Shown one piece after another: positions 1,919 to 51,834 of a DNA stretch of 64,000 nucleotides (within the stretch, counting starts at the first letter, position 1; the number at the start of each line of letters is the position of its first letter). The stretch is from NCBI RefSeq assembly GCF_000348985.1, contig NC_035922.1, forward strand, positions 881,604-945,603, read 5' to 3'. The notes below the pieces were generated by a model that saw only the letters and a program-made list of their open reading frames with translations, searched no databases and was not told where the DNA came from. Made by a program: the position numbers and the translations under genes. This DNA comes from Huiozyma naganishii CBS 8797 (lineage: Eukaryota; Ascomycota; Saccharomycetes; Saccharomycetales; Saccharomycetaceae).

Positions 1919-3139
1919 TCATTCGCCTCTTGGGTTCAATCTCTGCTTCACAGCGGCAAGTTCCTCTTGATTTAAATACCCTAGTTCCACATGGTCGTTG
2001 AATTCTAGCAATTTCAGATCGTGTACCATCTCCTTTATCTTCCCACCATCGCTGAACCTAATTTCATCGTAGTACGGTGCGCAGAGCGTTTGTAGTGGGG
2101 TGAGTCTGTCCACTGGGTTGTACTGCAGCACGTTAGTTAGCAGGTCCACCGTCAGCTCATCCTCCTTCTTGAAGACTTTCGTCAGCGGGATGGGTTTAAT
2201 CTGCGGGAACTTGTGTTCCATATAGTTTGGGTTCATAGCACAAATCTCTGGTTTCGAGGGAGTCCCCAGGATTTTTATGATCTCCACCAGTTGGTCGATC
2301 CCACTCTCCCCCGGGAACATGGGTTGCCCCAAGAGCAATTCTGCCATCACACATCCTGACGACCATATATCTATCTGGTTGGTATAATTTGTGGCCCCAA
2401 ATATGAGTTCTGGAGCCCTGTAGTACCTAGAACAGATATAGGAGACGTTTGGTTCTGTTGGTTTCAGTTGTTTTGCACTGCCGAAATCGCACAGTTTGAG
2501 ACACCAGGTATCTGGATCTACGAGCAAGTTTTGTGGTTTTATGTCTCTGTGACACACGTTGGCACTGTTATGCAGGTAGTTTAGTGCTTTGAATAGTTGG
2601 TACATGTAGAACTTGATCTCCAGACGGGGCATCGAAGTCCTCTGGTGCACGAAGTGTCTCAGCCGCTGGTACAGGGATTGTGGCACGTAGTCTAGGATCA
2701 GGTTCAAGTACACTTCGTCTTGGTCGTCCTTTTCGTAGAAAAAGTACTTCAAGTCGATGATATTTGGGTGTTGTAACAGTTTCATGATCTCCAACTCTCT
2801 GTTTTTGAATCTTTTGTCCTGCAAAACTTTTTTGATCGCTACCAACTCCTGCGTTTCCTGTATCGTTGTCGTGAACACCACGCCGAAGGAGCCGTGCCCT
2901 ATAACCTCTGTAGTGGGGAACGATATTTGGATCGGTTCGTTACCATGCCTCTGCTGTTCTTGATGTTGTTGTTGTGTATTCGGACTGTCATCATCATGCA
3001 AACCACCGTTCGCGTCCCCATTGGTGGCATTATTATAGTTATTATTTATGTCGGGATGGCCATAATAAACTTGTTTGTAAACTAGTTCTACGTTAGTAAA
3101 ATCGTTGTTGCTTCCTGTCTTGTGGGCCATGGTCAGCAT
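1919..3139 (-). CDS. RIM11: GSK-3 family protein kinase, short unspliced form (Rim11-like)
   Basis: This is an uninterrupted frame of 406 codons from ATG 3139, or 403 from ATG 3130, which fits Rim11 (370 aa) slightly better. It includes the kinase exon plus 19 residues that the long form would splice out as intron. The N-terminus [18 protein letters not shown] resembles S. cerevisiae Rim11 NLSNNIVSKQVYYAHP (from memory), so the short start is probably real and not just intron read-through. An asparagine- and glutamine-rich linker precedes [15 protein letters not shown]. Rim11 phosphorylates Ume6 and Ime1 for meiotic entry. The promoter would lie inside the long-form intron; a TATTTAAATAG at about 3711-3721 is a possible TATA element. 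Whether both forms are made is not shown by the sequence. Confidence 0.8.
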
Positions 3140-4481
3140 TATTCCCCGATTATTATCCTGTTGTTGTTGTTGTTGATTTTATCTACACACCTTTTGTCTT
3201 TCTCTCGTTCATGCACTTCCAAAAGAAAAGCCCAAGTTTCAAGCCTGTTATTCTTGTATGATGCTTTTGAAACCCCGACTCCGAGAGTTACAGAGCAGAT
3301 CGGGAATCAAAAAAAAAAAAGAGAAACTTTCAGAGAAAAAAAGAGAGTAAAGATGAGTTTGTTGGCGCACACACCCACCTCTATGTTTTCTTTATCTTCG
3401 CACCTTTCTGTCTATCTGTTCCCCCTCAAACAGAAAACAAACAAACAAAAAAAAAAACAAATACCAAAAATTAACTGTGCTTCTCCCAACTTTGAGATCT
3501 TCACAAAAGAAAACAAACACCTTTGACGATAGAACAGTCCCAGAAATCTAGTCAAACGAACACCAACCGAAAAACCACAAAAACCGCACAGCAGTCAACC
3601 TCTCGACGCTGATCGTAGACCTATATGTGTAGCAACTGTGTTCACCCCCCACCGTCGGTGCCAACTCTCTCTTCCCTCTCTCTCTTTCTTTTTTTCCCTT
3701 CTGTTTCCCTATTTAAATAGAATCTCCTCTCTTGCTCCCCCGCCAAAAAAATCGTAAATGCCGACGGGGCAGCTTTTTTTCCCGGAAAGTGCCAATTAAA
3801 AAAGGGTGAAATCTTTCGCGGTGCGTGGACAAACGTCTATAGGGCAGCGGTAGAGGGCTGTCAAGCAGTGCAACAACTGCACTGGATTCGAATCGGTAGA
3901 ATAGCCTGCTTGGCCATGTTAGTAGTAGTAGCACTCCCGCAGAGATTCGGAGACGCGTCGGTGCGTCGTTGTGTGCTTTACCTCCGTTCTCCGGGGGGGC
4001 ACGTGACAGCTCCGCACGTTCTCTCTGTCGGGGAGTGTTGCAGCCGGGAATTTTACATACCTATGTCGCCCTTCACGTGGGTCGCTAGGTCGAAGTTGAC
4101 CATTTTGTCGATCTGTTCCTTGGAGAGACGACTGCTCTTCCTCTTGTAGGGTTTGCTCTTGTGGGACCGCGGTGGTTTGAGGAGTTGCAGCGCCGTTGCT
4201 GTCGTCGTCGTGTTGATCTTGGTGATGACAGTTGAGGATTCTTTGCTTGGATCCGCGGTGGTGCTTGTGCCTGTATTTTCAGATTCAGGTGTCACGGCAA
4301 TCAACGTGCTCTCGATCTGTCTGTGGATCTCACGTACGTATTCCTCGTCGTTGTTGGGGGCTTTGTAGTCAATCTTGTACCGGCAAGTGGACTCGCTCTC
4401 CCGCAGTCTCTTTGCCTCAGAGTTGTCCGCTGCTGGTTCCCTTGAAGAGATCAACTTGCTCAGTCTTTGGCGTAGAGTCAT
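1919..4481 (-). CDS. MRK1: GSK-3 family protein kinase, long spliced form (Mrk1-like); exons 4061-4481 and 1919-3081
   Basis: Exon 1 runs from ATG 4481 to 4061 (140 codons plus one base) and ends at a perfect GTATGT donor. Exon 2 starts at 3081, after a TACTAAC branch site (3098-3092) and a CTAG acceptor ending at 3082. The phases match: G from exon 1 joins TT to give Val, then YKQVYYGHP and the kinase. The product is about 527 residues; S. cerevisiae Mrk1 has 501. Exon 1 resembles the Mrk1 N-terminus: [14 protein letters not shown] here against KLSKEKVEKMINFD there (recalled, not searched). Kinase marks are the GHGSFGVV loop, [20 protein letters not shown] and the activation-loop tyrosine in [16 protein letters not shown]-3 kinases act in stress, meiosis and glucose responses. 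The 979-nt intron is long for yeast and contains the start of the short form. Splicing is inferred, not observed. Confidence 0.75.
3082..4060 (-). other. MRK1 spliceosomal intron, 979 nt, with two branch-site matches
   Basis: The donor GTATGT is at 4060-4055. There are two perfect TACTAAC heptamers, at 3924-3918 and 3098-3092. The distal one precedes a CTAG acceptor that joins exon 1 to the kinase in frame. The proximal one is followed by a CAG (ending at 3906) whose use would add 36 codons (the junction Gly plus 35 residues) and end at TAA 3798-3796, giving a kinase-less protein. A perfect 7-bp inverted repeat (CAGTGCA...TGCACTG, 3866-3884) lies just past the proximal site. The intron also holds the presumed promoter and first 19 codons of the short kinase form. 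Confidence 0.7.
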
Positions 4482-4886
4482 CGATAGTATATATACTCTT
4501 ATACTGGAATGGTATGTATGGGGGGGCGGGCAAGAAAGTAGTAAGGTGAAGTATAGCAAAAGGGAATAAATAAGTCTGCGTTTGGCCTTGCTGCGTTCCC
4601 CTAAGAAAAAAAAAGCAAAAAGGAAAGGAGGGGGGGGATTGTGTCTGTCTGTGCGTATGCGTAAGTCTCTTCTAGTAGAATGAAGATCCAAGGACTTTGA
4701 TCAATCTGGCAACAAAAGAAAACGAAACAACAGCGCATCCCCCACCGCTCTGCCCCGCCCCCACGCGTTGGCTGTCAAAGGACTCGGAAGAGATTGCGAA
4801 ATTTTTCATATCTTTCTCTTTCTCTCCCCCCCCCCCGGTGAACTGTGCTCCGCACAAGTTTGAGTCACTATGGCCAGACCCCGTTC
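4482..4886. other. intergenic region, MRK1 promoter and MDH3 3' end
   Basis: No gene is visible. TATATATAC lies at about 4488-4496, very close to the exon 1 ATG, so it is more likely leader than a working TATA box. Poly-C and poly-A runs are present. Confidence 0.5.
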
Positions 4887-5927
4887 TCACAGCTTTGCAG
4901 GCTTGGCGACGTAGTTTCTGCCCTTGTCGATGTTCGAGGCTATCGGGGGGACAGCCACAGAAACCATCTGCTTCTCCAGCGTGGTCAAATTGTCCAGAAT
5001 GGACACGTCGACGTCAACTACACGACCGGAGCGGATCACTACCGGCAGGGAGAAGTACGTCACCGCAGTGGTCCCCAGCTTTGACTGCGCTTCAGCTCCG
5101 TGTGGTAAGTCAGGTAAGTACACGTATGCAGGTAAGTGTGCCCTTTTCTTGGTATTGGGGGATGCGCCACCGTGGACTATGCTCTCCAAGATGGCAGAGG
5201 TGAACTCGTACCCGGCGTACGCCATCGAAAGAGTAGCTGACCCGGCACCTTTCTTCGCCTGGATCACCTCATCACCACCAAACTGTATTCTGTTAATAAG
5301 CGCCTCGTACGCGCGCAGACCAACCGTTTCTTGCACACTCTTCTCTAGTAATATGGGGACGATCGTCTTCCCCGAGTGACCACCAATAACACTGATCTTT
5401 TGGCCCATCGTCCCCTTGTTCTGTGGCTGCCCGCTAGTCTTTCTCAGGACATCCCCAAGGAAGGATTCCGCCCTCACGATATCTAGCGTCGTGATGCCCA
5501 GTACTCGGCCCGCATCAAAGCACCCACACTCCCGGAAAGTCTCCGCAGCAACGGGCACGAGACAGTTGACAGGGTTGGAAATGACAAGCACAGTCGCCTC
5601 GGGACACGTCTTGCCAATCTCCAGACACAGCATTCGGACAATAGACGCGTTCACTCTAAACAGATCGTCCCTGGTCATTCCTGGTTTCCTCGCTAACCCA
5701 GCAGGAATCACAACTACTTGGGCTCCCGTGAGAGCCCGCTGTAGGTCCTTCTTATCAGACCCGGTACACACTGAGTTCGTGTTGATGTGAGAGAGGTCTG
5801 TAGCGATCCCCTCAGGGTTCTGTACATCGTATAGGGACAGTTCGGAAATAAAGGGACTCAGTTTCAAAAGCAGCGACAGTGGCTGTCCAACACCACCAGC
5901 TGCACCAAGAATAGCAACTTTAACCAT
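4887..5927 (-). CDS. MDH3: peroxisomal malate dehydrogenase
   Basis: This 346-residue NAD-dependent malate dehydrogenase interconverts malate and oxaloacetate. The N-terminal Rossmann motif GAAGGVGQP follows MVKVAIL directly. The Arg loop [16 protein letters not shown] and the catalytic-His loop [11 protein letters not shown] are all present. The C-terminus is PAKL, a PTS1-type tripeptide (AKL; S. cerevisiae Mdh3 ends in SKL), which supports peroxisomal Mdh3 over Mdh1 or Mdh2. Peroxisomal Mdh3 re-oxidises NADH from beta-oxidation. I chose ATG 5927 because it aligns with the Mdh3 start. An in-frame ATG at 5990 would add 21 residues (see findings). Position beside MRK1 matches S. cerevisiae. 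Confidence 0.93.
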
Positions 5928-6220
5928 TGTTAGATCTTGAATGTTTCGATACCTGTAACACCTGAAAGGAACGGTATCTCTCAAAGACATAGAAATGATC
6001 AACCCTCTCTGTTTTTCTCCCCATTTATACGGTACGTGAAATATCCTACTCCTTCAAAATCATGAAAGGGCCTATCCCCGGAAAAAATAAAACAGTGATG
6101 AAGAAAATGGAATTGTGTCACGGAACAACCTGCTGGGAAAAGAAGAAAGATTGGCTCACCAGAGGGACACGTACATACATTGTATACTTTTCGGATGATT
6201 ATAACGCTAGACTCGCTATT

Positions 6221-33066: not shown

Positions 33067-34089
33067 ATGTCCACAGACAAAATCACCTTTCTACTAAACT
33101 GGCAACCTGCCCCTTACCACATTGCCATCTTCTTGGCTTTGACCAAGGGCTACTTCAAGGAAGAAGGTCTAGACATGGCTATTTTGGAGCCCACCAATCC
33201 TTCCGATGTTACCGAATTAATTGGTTCCGGTAAGGTTGACATGGGTTTGAAAGCCATGATCCACACCTTGGCTGCTAAGGCTCGTGGATACCCTGTTACC
33301 TCTGTTGCCTCGCTATTGGATGAACCATTCACTGGTGTTTTGTACTTGGAGGGCAGCGGTATCACCGAGGACTTCCAATCCTTGAAGGGGAAAAAGATTG
33401 GGTACGTTGGTGAATTTGGTAAGATTCAAATTGACGAATTGACCAAACACTATGGTATGAAGCCAGATGAATACACTGCTGTCAGATGTGGTATGAATGT
33501 TGCCAAATACATCATTGAGGGTAAGATTGACGCTGGTGTTGGTATTGAATGTATGCAACAGGTTGAGTTGGAAAAATACTTGGTCCAACGTGGCAGACCA
33601 GCGACTGATGCCAAGATGCTGAGAATTGATAAGTTGGCTTGTTTGGGGTGCTGCTGCTTCTGCACCATCCTTTACATTTGCAACGATGCTTTCTTGAAGG
33701 CTAACCCAGAAAAGGTTAAGAAGTTCCTAAAGGCCATCAGAAAGGCCACCACTTTTATGTTGAACGACCCCGTTACTGCTTGGAAGGAATACATCGACTT
33801 CAAACCTCAATTGGACACTGACTTATCGTTCAAACAGTACCAAAGATGTTACGCTTACTTCTCTGAATCATTGTACAATGTGCACCGTGACTGGAAGAAG
33901 GTTACTGGCTATGGGAAGAGATTGGAAATTTTGCCACCTGACTATGTTGCCAACTACACTAACGAATACTTGACTTGGCCAGAACCGGAAGAAGTTTCTG
34001 ATCCTTTGGAAGCTCAAAGATTGATGGCTATCCACCAGGACAAGTGCAGAAAGGAGGGTACCTTTACAAGGTTGACCCTACCAGCCTAA
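33067..34089 (+). CDS. THI5: HMP-phosphate synthase, thiamine pyrimidine biosynthesis (THI5 family)
   Basis: A 340-residue member of the THI5/THI11/THI12/THI13 (NMT1) family and the same length as them. It makes the thiamine pyrimidine HMP-P from an active-site histidine and pyridoxal phosphate and is used once per molecule. The family marks are all here: the sacrificial His in [11 protein letters not shown] (about 66), the Lys-rich PLP region, and the cysteine cluster LGCCCFC (about 195-199) that binds iron. Codon use is strongly biased (AAG, TTG, GGT, GTT), unlike its neighbours, which indicates high expression when thiamine is scarce. S. cerevisiae has four subtelomeric copies; here a single internal copy sits between RAD5 and the EPO1-like gene. 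Confidence 0.96.
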
Positions 34090-50133: not shown

Positions 50134-50379
50134 ATGGCCTATAATAACAGTATGTACCCCATTGATGATAACGTACTCCCTCACCCGTCCCTACGGGACG
50201 ATCCCACTCACAATATACTAACATACCATCACCGAACACAAACCAGCAGGCCACAGGTTCGAACGACTCAAACAGACAATTATAGGACCAACAGCAGGAA
50301 GAGGGCGTACCCGCACAACGGAGACCCTCAACCAGGGGAACTAGCAGAACAGCCTCCGAAGGGCGGCGGCAGACCGAAA

Positions 50380-50412
<33 letters not shown>

Positions 50413-51834
50413 CAGCGCAGTGCGAACGCCCGCCGACGCGCGAACAAGAAACAGCACTTCAGACCGAATACACAGCACCAGTCCCGGTACGAGGGGGCAC
50501 AGACGGACTCGTCCAGGCAACGATATACACCGAAACAGAGGGGCCAGCCAATAGCGAGGAGCCGGCCCACGTCGACACAAACACAAGCACCACCACCATT
50601 GTCGGAGGATGAGTTCTTGTCACACTTGCCCAAGGGACCCAAATTGGGTAGCAATGCTGCACCAGGGCAGAGTAATACTACATATAACAGCACCCAAGCG
50701 GGTGCAAGGACACTGACATTGCCTAGGGGCCCCGCTGCCCCTGCTCCAACTCCTGCTCTTCCAGAACGCAAATACCCGCGTGTCCCCGCGATGCTCTCAC
50801 AAACCAGGGAGGCTTCAGTGTATGAGCGGATCCTCCAAGTCGGCGAGGGTACCTACGGGAAAGTGTACAAGGCGAAGAACTCGTTGACGGGCGGGCTCGT
50901 CGCTTTGAAGAAACTAAGACTGCAAAGCGAGCGGGAGGGCTTCCCAATTACCTCGATCCGTGAGATCAAGTTGCTCCAGTCTTTTGACCACGAGAACGTC
51001 TCCAATATCAGAGAGATTATGGTCGAGTCCTCCAAGGTCATATACATGATCTTCGACTACGCGGACAACGATCTAGGCGGGATCCTCCTCAACAACTCTC
51101 TAAAGTTGTCCGATGCACAACGCAAACACGTCACAAGGCAGCTGCTCGAAGGGTGCAAGTACCTCCACGAACAGAGAGTCATCCACAGGGACATCAAGGG
51201 GTCCAACATCCTTATAGACAACGACGGCCGCTTAAAGATTACAGATTTCGGCCTCGCGAGACGCATGGCACCCTCCCATGGCAACAACGGACAGGGATAC
51301 ACCAACAGAGTGATCACTCTGTGGTACAGGCCGCCAGAATTGCTTCTGGGGACCACCCACTACGGCACAGAGGTAGACATGTGGGGGTGTGGCTGTCTCC
51401 TGTTAGAAATGTTTTACGGGAAGGCCGTATTCCAAGGTGCAAACGAGCTTGAGCAACTCATCGCAGTGTTTCAATTACTAGGGACGCCAACACCAGCTGC
51501 ATTCCCGCAATTGTTCGATATGCCCTGGTTCTTCATGGTCATGCCACTGATAAAGAAGAAGTACGCGGATGTCTTCCACGATACGTTCGCGCACTTGCTT
51601 CCCAGCGGCGCCGCTTTGGAACTCGCTCGCGGACTGCTAGACTACGACCAGAACAAGAGACTCACCGCAAAACAGGCCCTCCAGTGCGTATACTTTACGG
51701 AAGACCCGCAGCCGGAACCTCTCAAGATAGCGAGCGGGTCCGGCGGTGGGTGCCACGAGTACGAGATAAAACTGGCCCGAAAACAGCAGAGGGAGAGGGA
51801 TAAGAAGGCGCAAAGGAGCACCTCCCGCGAGTGA
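50134..51834 (+). CDS. CTK1: CTD kinase I catalytic subunit Ctk1
   Basis: A 566-residue cyclin-dependent kinase (S. cerevisiae Ctk1 has 528). The N-terminal about 225 residues are basic and low-complexity, with an Asn-Gln repeat. The kinase domain shows the loop VGEGTYGKVYKAKN, VIHRDIKGSNILID, DFGLAR, and the T-loop NRVITLWYRPPELLLG. A short basic tail follows. Ctk1 phosphorylates Ser2 of the RNA polymerase II CTD during elongation. The order TGL1-CTK1-HSK3-MRPL31-CMC1 matches YKL140W to YKL137W. Confidence 0.95.
50383..50412 (+). repeat. hexanucleotide repeat AACCAG x5 inside CTK1
   Basis: Five perfect copies of AACCAG encoding five Asn-Gln pairs in the disordered N-terminus of Ctk1. Length changes would keep the frame. 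Confidence 0.9.

What the first reader, a model, noticed from the sequence alone, without database searches (positions are those of the whole stretch)
1919..4481. One GSK-3 gene appears to encode both an Mrk1-like (spliced) and a Rim11-like (unspliced) kinase
Exon 1 (4481-4061) ends in GTATGT, and its end ([14 protein letters not shown]) matches my recollection of Mrk1. A TACTAAC and CTAG at 3098-3082 join it in phase to the kinase at YKQVYYGHP. An ATG at 3139/3130, inside that intron, gives a kinase whose N-terminus instead matches Rim11. The branch site even lies within the Rim11-type coding sequence. If both are made, an alternative first exon in one gene would have been split into two genes (MRK1 with intron, RIM11 without) after genome duplication. 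I know of similar cases (SKI7/HBS1, PTC7) but not of this one.
Basis: partly seen in the sequence, partly recalled or inferred. Interest (0 to 1): 0.85.

Follow-up and report, generated by a model that had tools for sequence, protein, structure and literature searches.

The report
Two-start MRK1 kinase gene, RIM11 lost
A yeast kinase gene seems built to make a long spliced protein and a short one that starts inside the intron, as baker's yeast MRK1 is known to do; here the sister gene RIM11 is gone, and the intron looks older than published.

Summary
By gene order the locus is that of S. cerevisiae MRK1. Exon 1 is homologous to Saccharomyces MRK1 exon 1; the intron has the same place, phase 1, a GTATGT donor and an inferred common 11-nt branch-to-acceptor spacing. 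The short-form start, which holds the branch site in frame, is also conserved in Lachancea and Zygotorulaspora proteins. The genome is duplicated, not pre-duplication: a sister block on contig 5 keeps SIP5- and CIN4-like genes with no kinase between them, so RIM11 is lost.

The two-product design is not new. Zhou et al. 2017 showed in S. cerevisiae that the MRK1 intron holds an Ndt80-driven start giving a short kinase. New here: the same layout outside Saccharomyces, against two papers that restrict the MRK1 intron to Saccharomyces (one lists it as a potential intron gain), in a genome without RIM11.

S. cerevisiae MRK1 makes both forms, not only the long one, and exon 1 was not found before the duplication, though my searches could easily miss it. 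No RNA data were available; a competing proximal branch site exists.

The parts
4061..4481 (-). Exon 1 of the long (Mrk1-type) form, 140 codons plus 1 nt
   Evidence: Open frame and phase; codon usage; homology to Saccharomyces MRK1 exon 1; single copy in the genome
4482..4886 (-). Presumed promoter and leader of the long form, between the MDH3-like stop and exon 1
   Evidence: Position; TATATA near 4495; inferred
4055..4060 (-). 5' splice site GTATGT, phase 1
   Evidence: same donor and phase deduced for Saccharomyces from read-through proteins
3082..4060 (-). Intron of the long form, 979 nt
3918..3924 (-). Proximal TACTAAC; with CAG ending 3906 a competing acceptor (dead-end 176-aa product)
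3140..3760 (-). Presumed internal promoter and leader of the short form: TATTTAA near 3719, T runs, A-rich last 60 nt; a 9-codon upstream frame at ATG 3212
   Evidence: inferred, no transcript data
3083..3139 (-). 19 codons special to the short form (second ATG at 3130)
   Evidence: coding score 0.25 bits/codon
3092..3098 (-). Branch site TACTAAC inside short-form codons F-T-N
3082..3085 (-). 3' splice site CTAG, 11 nt after the branch A
1919..3081 (-). Exon 2, GSK-3 kinase shared by both forms
   Evidence: Pfam Pkinase; GSK-3 structures are the best matches
1919..3139 (-). Short (Rim11-type) reading frame, 406 aa
4887..5990 (-). MDH3-like malate dehydrogenase, the S. cerevisiae MRK1 neighbour (name and order recalled)

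Best explanation
The gene is the MRK1 ortholog of a post-duplication Kazachstania-type yeast and is laid out to make two kinases. A transcript from before exon 1, spliced 4060/3082, gives a 527-aa Mrk1-type kinase. A transcript starting inside the intron (expected about 3200-3750) gives a 403-406-aa Rim11-type kinase whose first codons contain the branch site and 3' splice site used by the other product. S. cerevisiae MRK1 has the homologous intron and the same kind of intron start. RIM11 has been lost here, so the short form probably supplies Rim11's work, including early meiosis. Shown by sequence: the frames, the homologous exon 1 and intron, the gene order and the absence of RIM11. Inferred: that both products are made here, and what each does.
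For: Frames and signals; coding statistics; exon-1 homology. Intron phase agrees across genes whose last exon-1 base differs: the S. uvarum-type P0121 reads through as R-M-Y and the spliced P0042 has L; here the read-through is G-M-stop and the splice gives V, as a phase-1 GTATGT donor and a TT acceptor demand. S. kudriavzevii records hold both forms, P0043 long and P0044 short, alike from HKKVYKHEHAG. TNxx[ILVM]V before the x-K-x-V-Y anchor in 16 of 49 rows, Lachancea and Zygotorulaspora among them. Gene order (most names recalled). Sister block on contig 5: NDE- and ADE16/17-like copies in the same order and orientation; SIP5-like (recalled) and CIN4 genes with no kinase between. Intron-internal start and short protein demonstrated in S. 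cerevisiae (PMC5685637).
Against: No transcript data for this species. The 11-nt branch-to-acceptor distance is short: three likely introns nearby have 25, 29 and 48. A proximal TACTAAC could capture the donor. The Ndt80 sites that drive the S. cerevisiae internal start are not significant here: 2 eight-letter matches against 0.6 expected, P 0.12, no nine-letter match. The kinase tree does not settle MRK1 against RIM11 orthology (AU p 0.279 and 0.209), and the kinase itself is more like Rim11 (P0011) than like Saccharomyces Mrk1 (80% against 57-65% identity).
Confidence: 0.78

Rival explanations
1. Late exon gain: the ancestor was short-only (Rim11-type), and the MRK1 copy alone acquired exon 1 and the intron after the genome duplication but before Saccharomyces and Kazachstania parted. 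The conserved TN and IV residues then happened to serve as branch site and acceptor.
For: Exon 1 was found only in MRK1-locus genes (and gene order); the short start is conserved where no exon 1 is known; Hooks et al. 2014 list this intron as a potential gain.
Against: Absence rests on searches of predicted proteins by exact five-residue words, in which this genome's own exon 1 was not listed either. [quoted passage not shown] A weak match to the Saccharomycodes N-terminus hints at an older exon 1.
Confidence: 0.42
2. Short form only: exon 1 is a relic or a separate small gene, and the kinase is made only from the inner start.
For: 11-nt branch distance and a 979-nt intron are unusual; the listed database protein of this gene is the 406-aa form.
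Against: Exon 1 keeps codon usage like that of the kinase, its two conserved blocks, and the donor in the Saccharomyces phase.
Confidence: 0.1
3. Proximal splicing: the long transcript is mainly spliced 4060/3906, giving a 176-aa exon-1 protein or a decay target, so that the upstream promoter is regulatory rather than productive.
For: A consensus TACTAAC and CAG at ordinary intron distance from the donor.
Against: Saccharomyces long forms join the homologous exon 1 to the kinase. One TACTAAC on the sense strand of 979 nt is expected by chance about 0.06 times (arithmetic), so it is only mildly surprising.
Confidence: 0.12

Closest known systems
S. cerevisiae MRK1 with Ndt80-driven internal initiation in its intron (Zhou, Sternglanz and Neiman 2017, PMC5685637; abstract, passages and sections 8, 16, 18 seen)
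   Same: Same locus by gene order, homologous exon 1, phase-1 GTATGT intron, kinase wholly in exon 2, in-frame ATG in the intron (11 intron-coded residues there, 19 here), branch site inside the short-form start (inferred there).
   Different: Here the intron is 979 nt, Ndt80 sites are not significant, the kinase sequence is closer to Rim11, and no RIM11 is found in the genome.
S. cerevisiae RIM11 (paralog of MRK1 from the genome duplication: database text quoted in PMC8144909, passage seen)
   Same: Short kinase with N-terminus ...IV-x-KQVYY; 79% identical over 339 residues (taking the unnamed P0011 for Rim11).
   Different: RIM11 has no exon 1; in this genome its place in the sister block holds no kinase.
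SKI7/HBS1 and PTC7 (Marshall et al. 2013, PMC3597508; abstract and passages seen)
   Same: One gene making two proteins, tied to a duplicated pair of genes in some species.
   Different: Those use alternative splicing or intron retention; here an alternative promoter and first exon. MRK1 and RIM11 do not occur in the text searched.

Membership tests
MRK1 ortholog | Position between THI3 and MDH3 | tested here: met
   TPP enzyme at L029:7996-9858 and malate dehydrogenase at window 4887-5990; gene names and S. cerevisiae order recalled
MRK1 ortholog | Homologous exon 1 | tested here: met
MRK1 ortholog | Intron at the same place, phase 1, GTATGT | tested here: met
   Deduced from protein read-through and spliced records, not from Saccharomyces DNA
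MRK1 ortholog | Groups with Saccharomyces MRK1 in a kinase tree | tested here: inconclusive
   open forks; neither grouping rejected (AU p 0.279 with MRK1, 0.209 with RIM11)
Dual-start MRK1 (intron start) | In-frame ATG in the intron joined to the kinase | tested here: met
Dual-start MRK1 (intron start) | Transcription start inside the intron | not testable with these tools
   No RNA data held
Dual-start MRK1 (intron start) | Ndt80 site (MSE) before the internal start | tested here: inconclusive
   2 eight-letter matches, 0.6 expected, P 0.12; 0 nine-letter matches; an Ndt80-family gene is present on C8
GSK-3 kinase | Kinase domain closest to GSK-3 | tested here: met
Ancestral dual gene split by genome duplication | Exon 1 present in a pre-duplication species or in a RIM11 ortholog | tested here: inconclusive
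   Not found; the search needs exact five-residue words and predicted proteins, and this genome's own exon 1 was not listed either
Ancestral dual gene split by genome duplication | Short-form start present in pre-duplication species | tested here: met
   Zygotorulaspora mrakii, Lachancea mirantina and L. dasiensis rows; their pre-duplication status is recalled

The most novel reading that the evidence does not exclude
Before the yeast genome duplication one GSK-3 gene already made a long and a short kinase from two promoters, with the splice signals of one written inside the coding start of the other. RIM11 (short only) and MRK1 (both forms) are its unequal heirs, and this lineage could drop RIM11 because the dual gene covers both.
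Probability: 0.5. Interest if true: 0.65.

Novelty: new member of a known kind. Interest (0 to 1): 0.5.

Why it matters
It moves the MRK1 intron, listed in print as Saccharomyces-only and a potential gain, back at least to the ancestor shared with a Kazachstania-type yeast. It offers a genome in which one locus must cover both MRK1 and RIM11. It also offers a clean way to part the two products: the branch site lies in sense codons, so a synonymous change should stop splicing without altering the short protein.

Tried and rejected
Ndt80 control of the inner start: not supported by motif counts. Kinase tree to decide MRK1 against RIM11 orthology: unresolved; the quick tree puts this gene nearer Saccharomyces MRK1 than P0011 with support of only 80, next to a long MRK1 branch. 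Exon 1 in other yeasts: two profile searches returned the same six proteins, P0121-P0126 (6 of 1065 candidates at E up to 1; 6 of 45 at E up to 10). Saccharomycodes exon 1: suggestive only; 15.5 bits against this exon alone (best of 5000 shuffles of it 9.7), but no match to the Saccharomyces profile or to the joint profile, and Hanseniaspora gives none. RIM11 relic near the SIP5- and CIN4-like genes: none significant (best E 0.20 for the kinase, a 15-residue match between aminotransferase and CIN4; 0.17 for exon 1). AAG at 3070 as acceptor: possible and in frame, but the Saccharomyces geometry favours CTAG. Structure of the S. uvarum long form P0042: two low-confidence helices in exon 1 (63-83, 112-136), the rest mostly under pLDDT 50; no conclusion on function.

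Full report
What is there. On the minus strand, exon 1 (4481-4061, phase 1) ends at GTATGT. A TACTAAC (3098-3092) and CTAG (ending 3082) lead in phase to the GSK-3 kinase exon (3081-1919). ATG 3139 or 3130, inside that intron, opens the same kinase frame. The spliced protein has 527 aa, the short one 406 or 403 aa. In the short form the branch site is the last base of an F codon plus the T and N codons, and the acceptor is the end of an L codon plus the first base of a V codon.

Is it more than chance. I scanned 264 kb of this genome (window plus C1:680001-880000) on both strands. Among the rows printed (9 of 71; four donor types with exact TACTAAC), it was the only GTATGT place that joins an ATG frame of at least 100 codons to at least 60 further codons in phase; one GTATGA place (375/308 codons) looks like a chance match inside one frame. 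Codon usage of exon 1 (0.22 bits per codon) is close to that of the kinase (0.25); 0 of 2000 shuffles reach it, the other five frames are negative, the three sense frames of the intron are negative, and the 19 short-form codons score 0.25.

What exon 1 is. A search with the long protein listed 120 of 7885 matches; I looked at the N-termini of the first 63. Among these, long forms with a Saccharomyces-type exon 1 were S. uvarum P0042 and S. kudriavzevii P0043. Searches with the exon alone found the same six proteins twice (6 of 1065 candidates; 6 of 45); P0124 and P0126 are named S. cerevisiae and S. pastorianus, the others are unnamed but Saccharomyces-like. The window's exon 1 matches a profile of four such exons with 20.9 bits; the best of 10,000 shuffles has 13.3. 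By single sequence the margin is thinner: 16.6 bits against 14.0 for the best of 5000 shuffles, and BLASTP E 2e-6 for one comparison. Two blocks are shared, around NNxxEYxxxIxxxIxSxL and SSxLSKExxxKMxNFD. In an AlphaFold model of P0042 they fall in helices 63-83 and 112-136, both of low confidence (block means 46-69), the second running into the first kinase strand.

The intron is the same intron. Proteins called from unspliced DNA read through the donor as R-M-Y in P0121 (same exon as S. uvarum P0042) and S-M-Y in P0123 (same exon as S. cerevisiae P0124); here it is G-M-stop. That fits C, A or G followed by GTATGT in phase 1. The spliced S. uvarum protein then has L (C+TT) where this gene has V (G+TT). 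The S. kudriavzevii records P0044 (short) and P0043 (long) agree from HKKVYKHEHAG onward. That distance is short: three likely introns of this genome have 25, 29 and 48.

The short start is old. Of 49 rows (P0001-P0054 less five rows from other organisms), 16 have TNxx[ILVM]V directly before the x-K-x-V-Y anchor, 23 have another pattern (two of these are the long forms P0042 and P0043) and 10 gave no anchor. The 16 include Zygotorulaspora mrakii, Lachancea mirantina and L. dasiensis, which I recall as non-duplicated, and Maudiozyma. Rows against: P0011 (which I take for S. cerevisiae Rim11) reads LSNNIV; Arxiozyma has TS, Z. rouxii GN; some Naumovozyma and Kazachstania-type rows have other spacing; Eremothecium keeps TN but lacks the IV; Kluyveromyces has neither. 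Protein letters cannot show whether the codons spell TACTAAC.

Which gene it is. Left of the window lie a THI3-like TPP enzyme, a SUB2-like helicase, an NDE-like dehydrogenase and LUC7; right of the kinase come MDH3-like and GATA-factor genes, and further on RIC1 (PDB match 6.5e-289). With the S. cerevisiae order YDL087C to YDL078C, which I recall, this is the MRK1 place. The next-best kinase in the genome is 44% identical, MCK1-type by recall. NDE- and ADE16/17-like genes have second copies on contig 5 in the same order and orientation (54% and 79% identical), the mark of a genome duplication. There a SIP5-like gene (name recalled) and CIN4 (PDB match 4e-63) stand either side of an aminotransferase, and no kinase or significant relic is found. 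In S. cerevisiae RIM11 lies between CIN4 and SIP5 (recalled), and MRK1 and RIM11 are duplication paralogs (database text quoted in PMC8144909). So RIM11 is lost here. I infer Kazachstania (Huiozyma) naganishii from 10.85 Mb in 13 contigs; no call names the species (one search gives only its current taxonomy).

What is in print. Zhou et al. 2017 (PMC5685637; abstract, passages and sections 8, 16 and 18 read) show in S. cerevisiae that MRK1 gives a spliced full-length product and, after Ndt80, a transcript starting in the intron whose ATG adds 11 intron-coded residues to the kinase. The short protein is seen on blots and modestly helps sporulation at low temperature when RIM11 is depleted. [quoted passage not shown] Hooks et al. 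2014 (PMC4202332; passages and section 10 read) found it only in Saccharomyces sensu stricto and name it among eight potential gains, with K. naganishii among their 20 species. The present locus speaks against both statements. A table in PMC8394074 (passage only) lists MRK1 among 49 of 90 genes with retained introns in S. cerevisiae spores, which intron-started transcripts might explain. Ten literature searches (nine with MRK1 among the terms, optional in 6 and 24) listed no paper on a common dual ancestor of MRK1 and RIM11; the library is open-licence PubMed Central only.

Mechanism and limits. Best reading: two promoters, one gene. The upstream start gives the long kinase by splicing; the intron start leaves the donor out of the transcript, so the acceptor region is simply translated. 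The intron before ATG 3139 has a TATTTAA, T runs and an A-rich last 60 nt, a 9-codon upstream frame at 3212, and no significant Ndt80 site, though an Ndt80-family gene is present. Rim11 acts at meiotic entry, before Ndt80, in S. cerevisiae (PMC5685637), so a genome without RIM11 should need the short form earlier; that is inference. Open points: no transcript data; a proximal TACTAAC that could divert the long transcript to a 176-aa dead end; and whether exon 1 predates the duplication. The protein searches could not settle the last point, since even this genome's own exon 1 was not in their lists.

Noticed in passing
window 3924-3918 and 3906: A second consensus branch site and CAG acceptor soon after the donor could give a 176-aa exon-1 protein without kinase: possible regulatory or dead-end splicing.
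   Followed up: partly
L037:3725-5134 (G000:C5:426125-427534): A class-III aminotransferase gene lies between the SIP5-like and CIN4 genes, where RIM11 stands in S. cerevisiae (recalled). Origin not examined.
   Followed up: no
window 50150-50216: GTATGT and TACTAAC lie 66 nt apart close to the start of a BUR1-like kinase frame (50134-51834); possibly chance.
   Followed up: no
window 33067-34089: A THI5-like gene lies between RAD5-like and RPL15-like genes (names recalled).
   Followed up: no
P0035 (Saccharomycodes ludwigii, 711 aa): A GSK-3 record with a 380-residue N-terminus that weakly resembles exon 1; could mark an older origin of the long form.
   Followed up: partly
PMC8394074, table of intron retention in S. 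cerevisiae spores: MRK1 is listed as intron-retaining in spores; transcripts that start inside its intron could be counted as retention.
   Followed up: no
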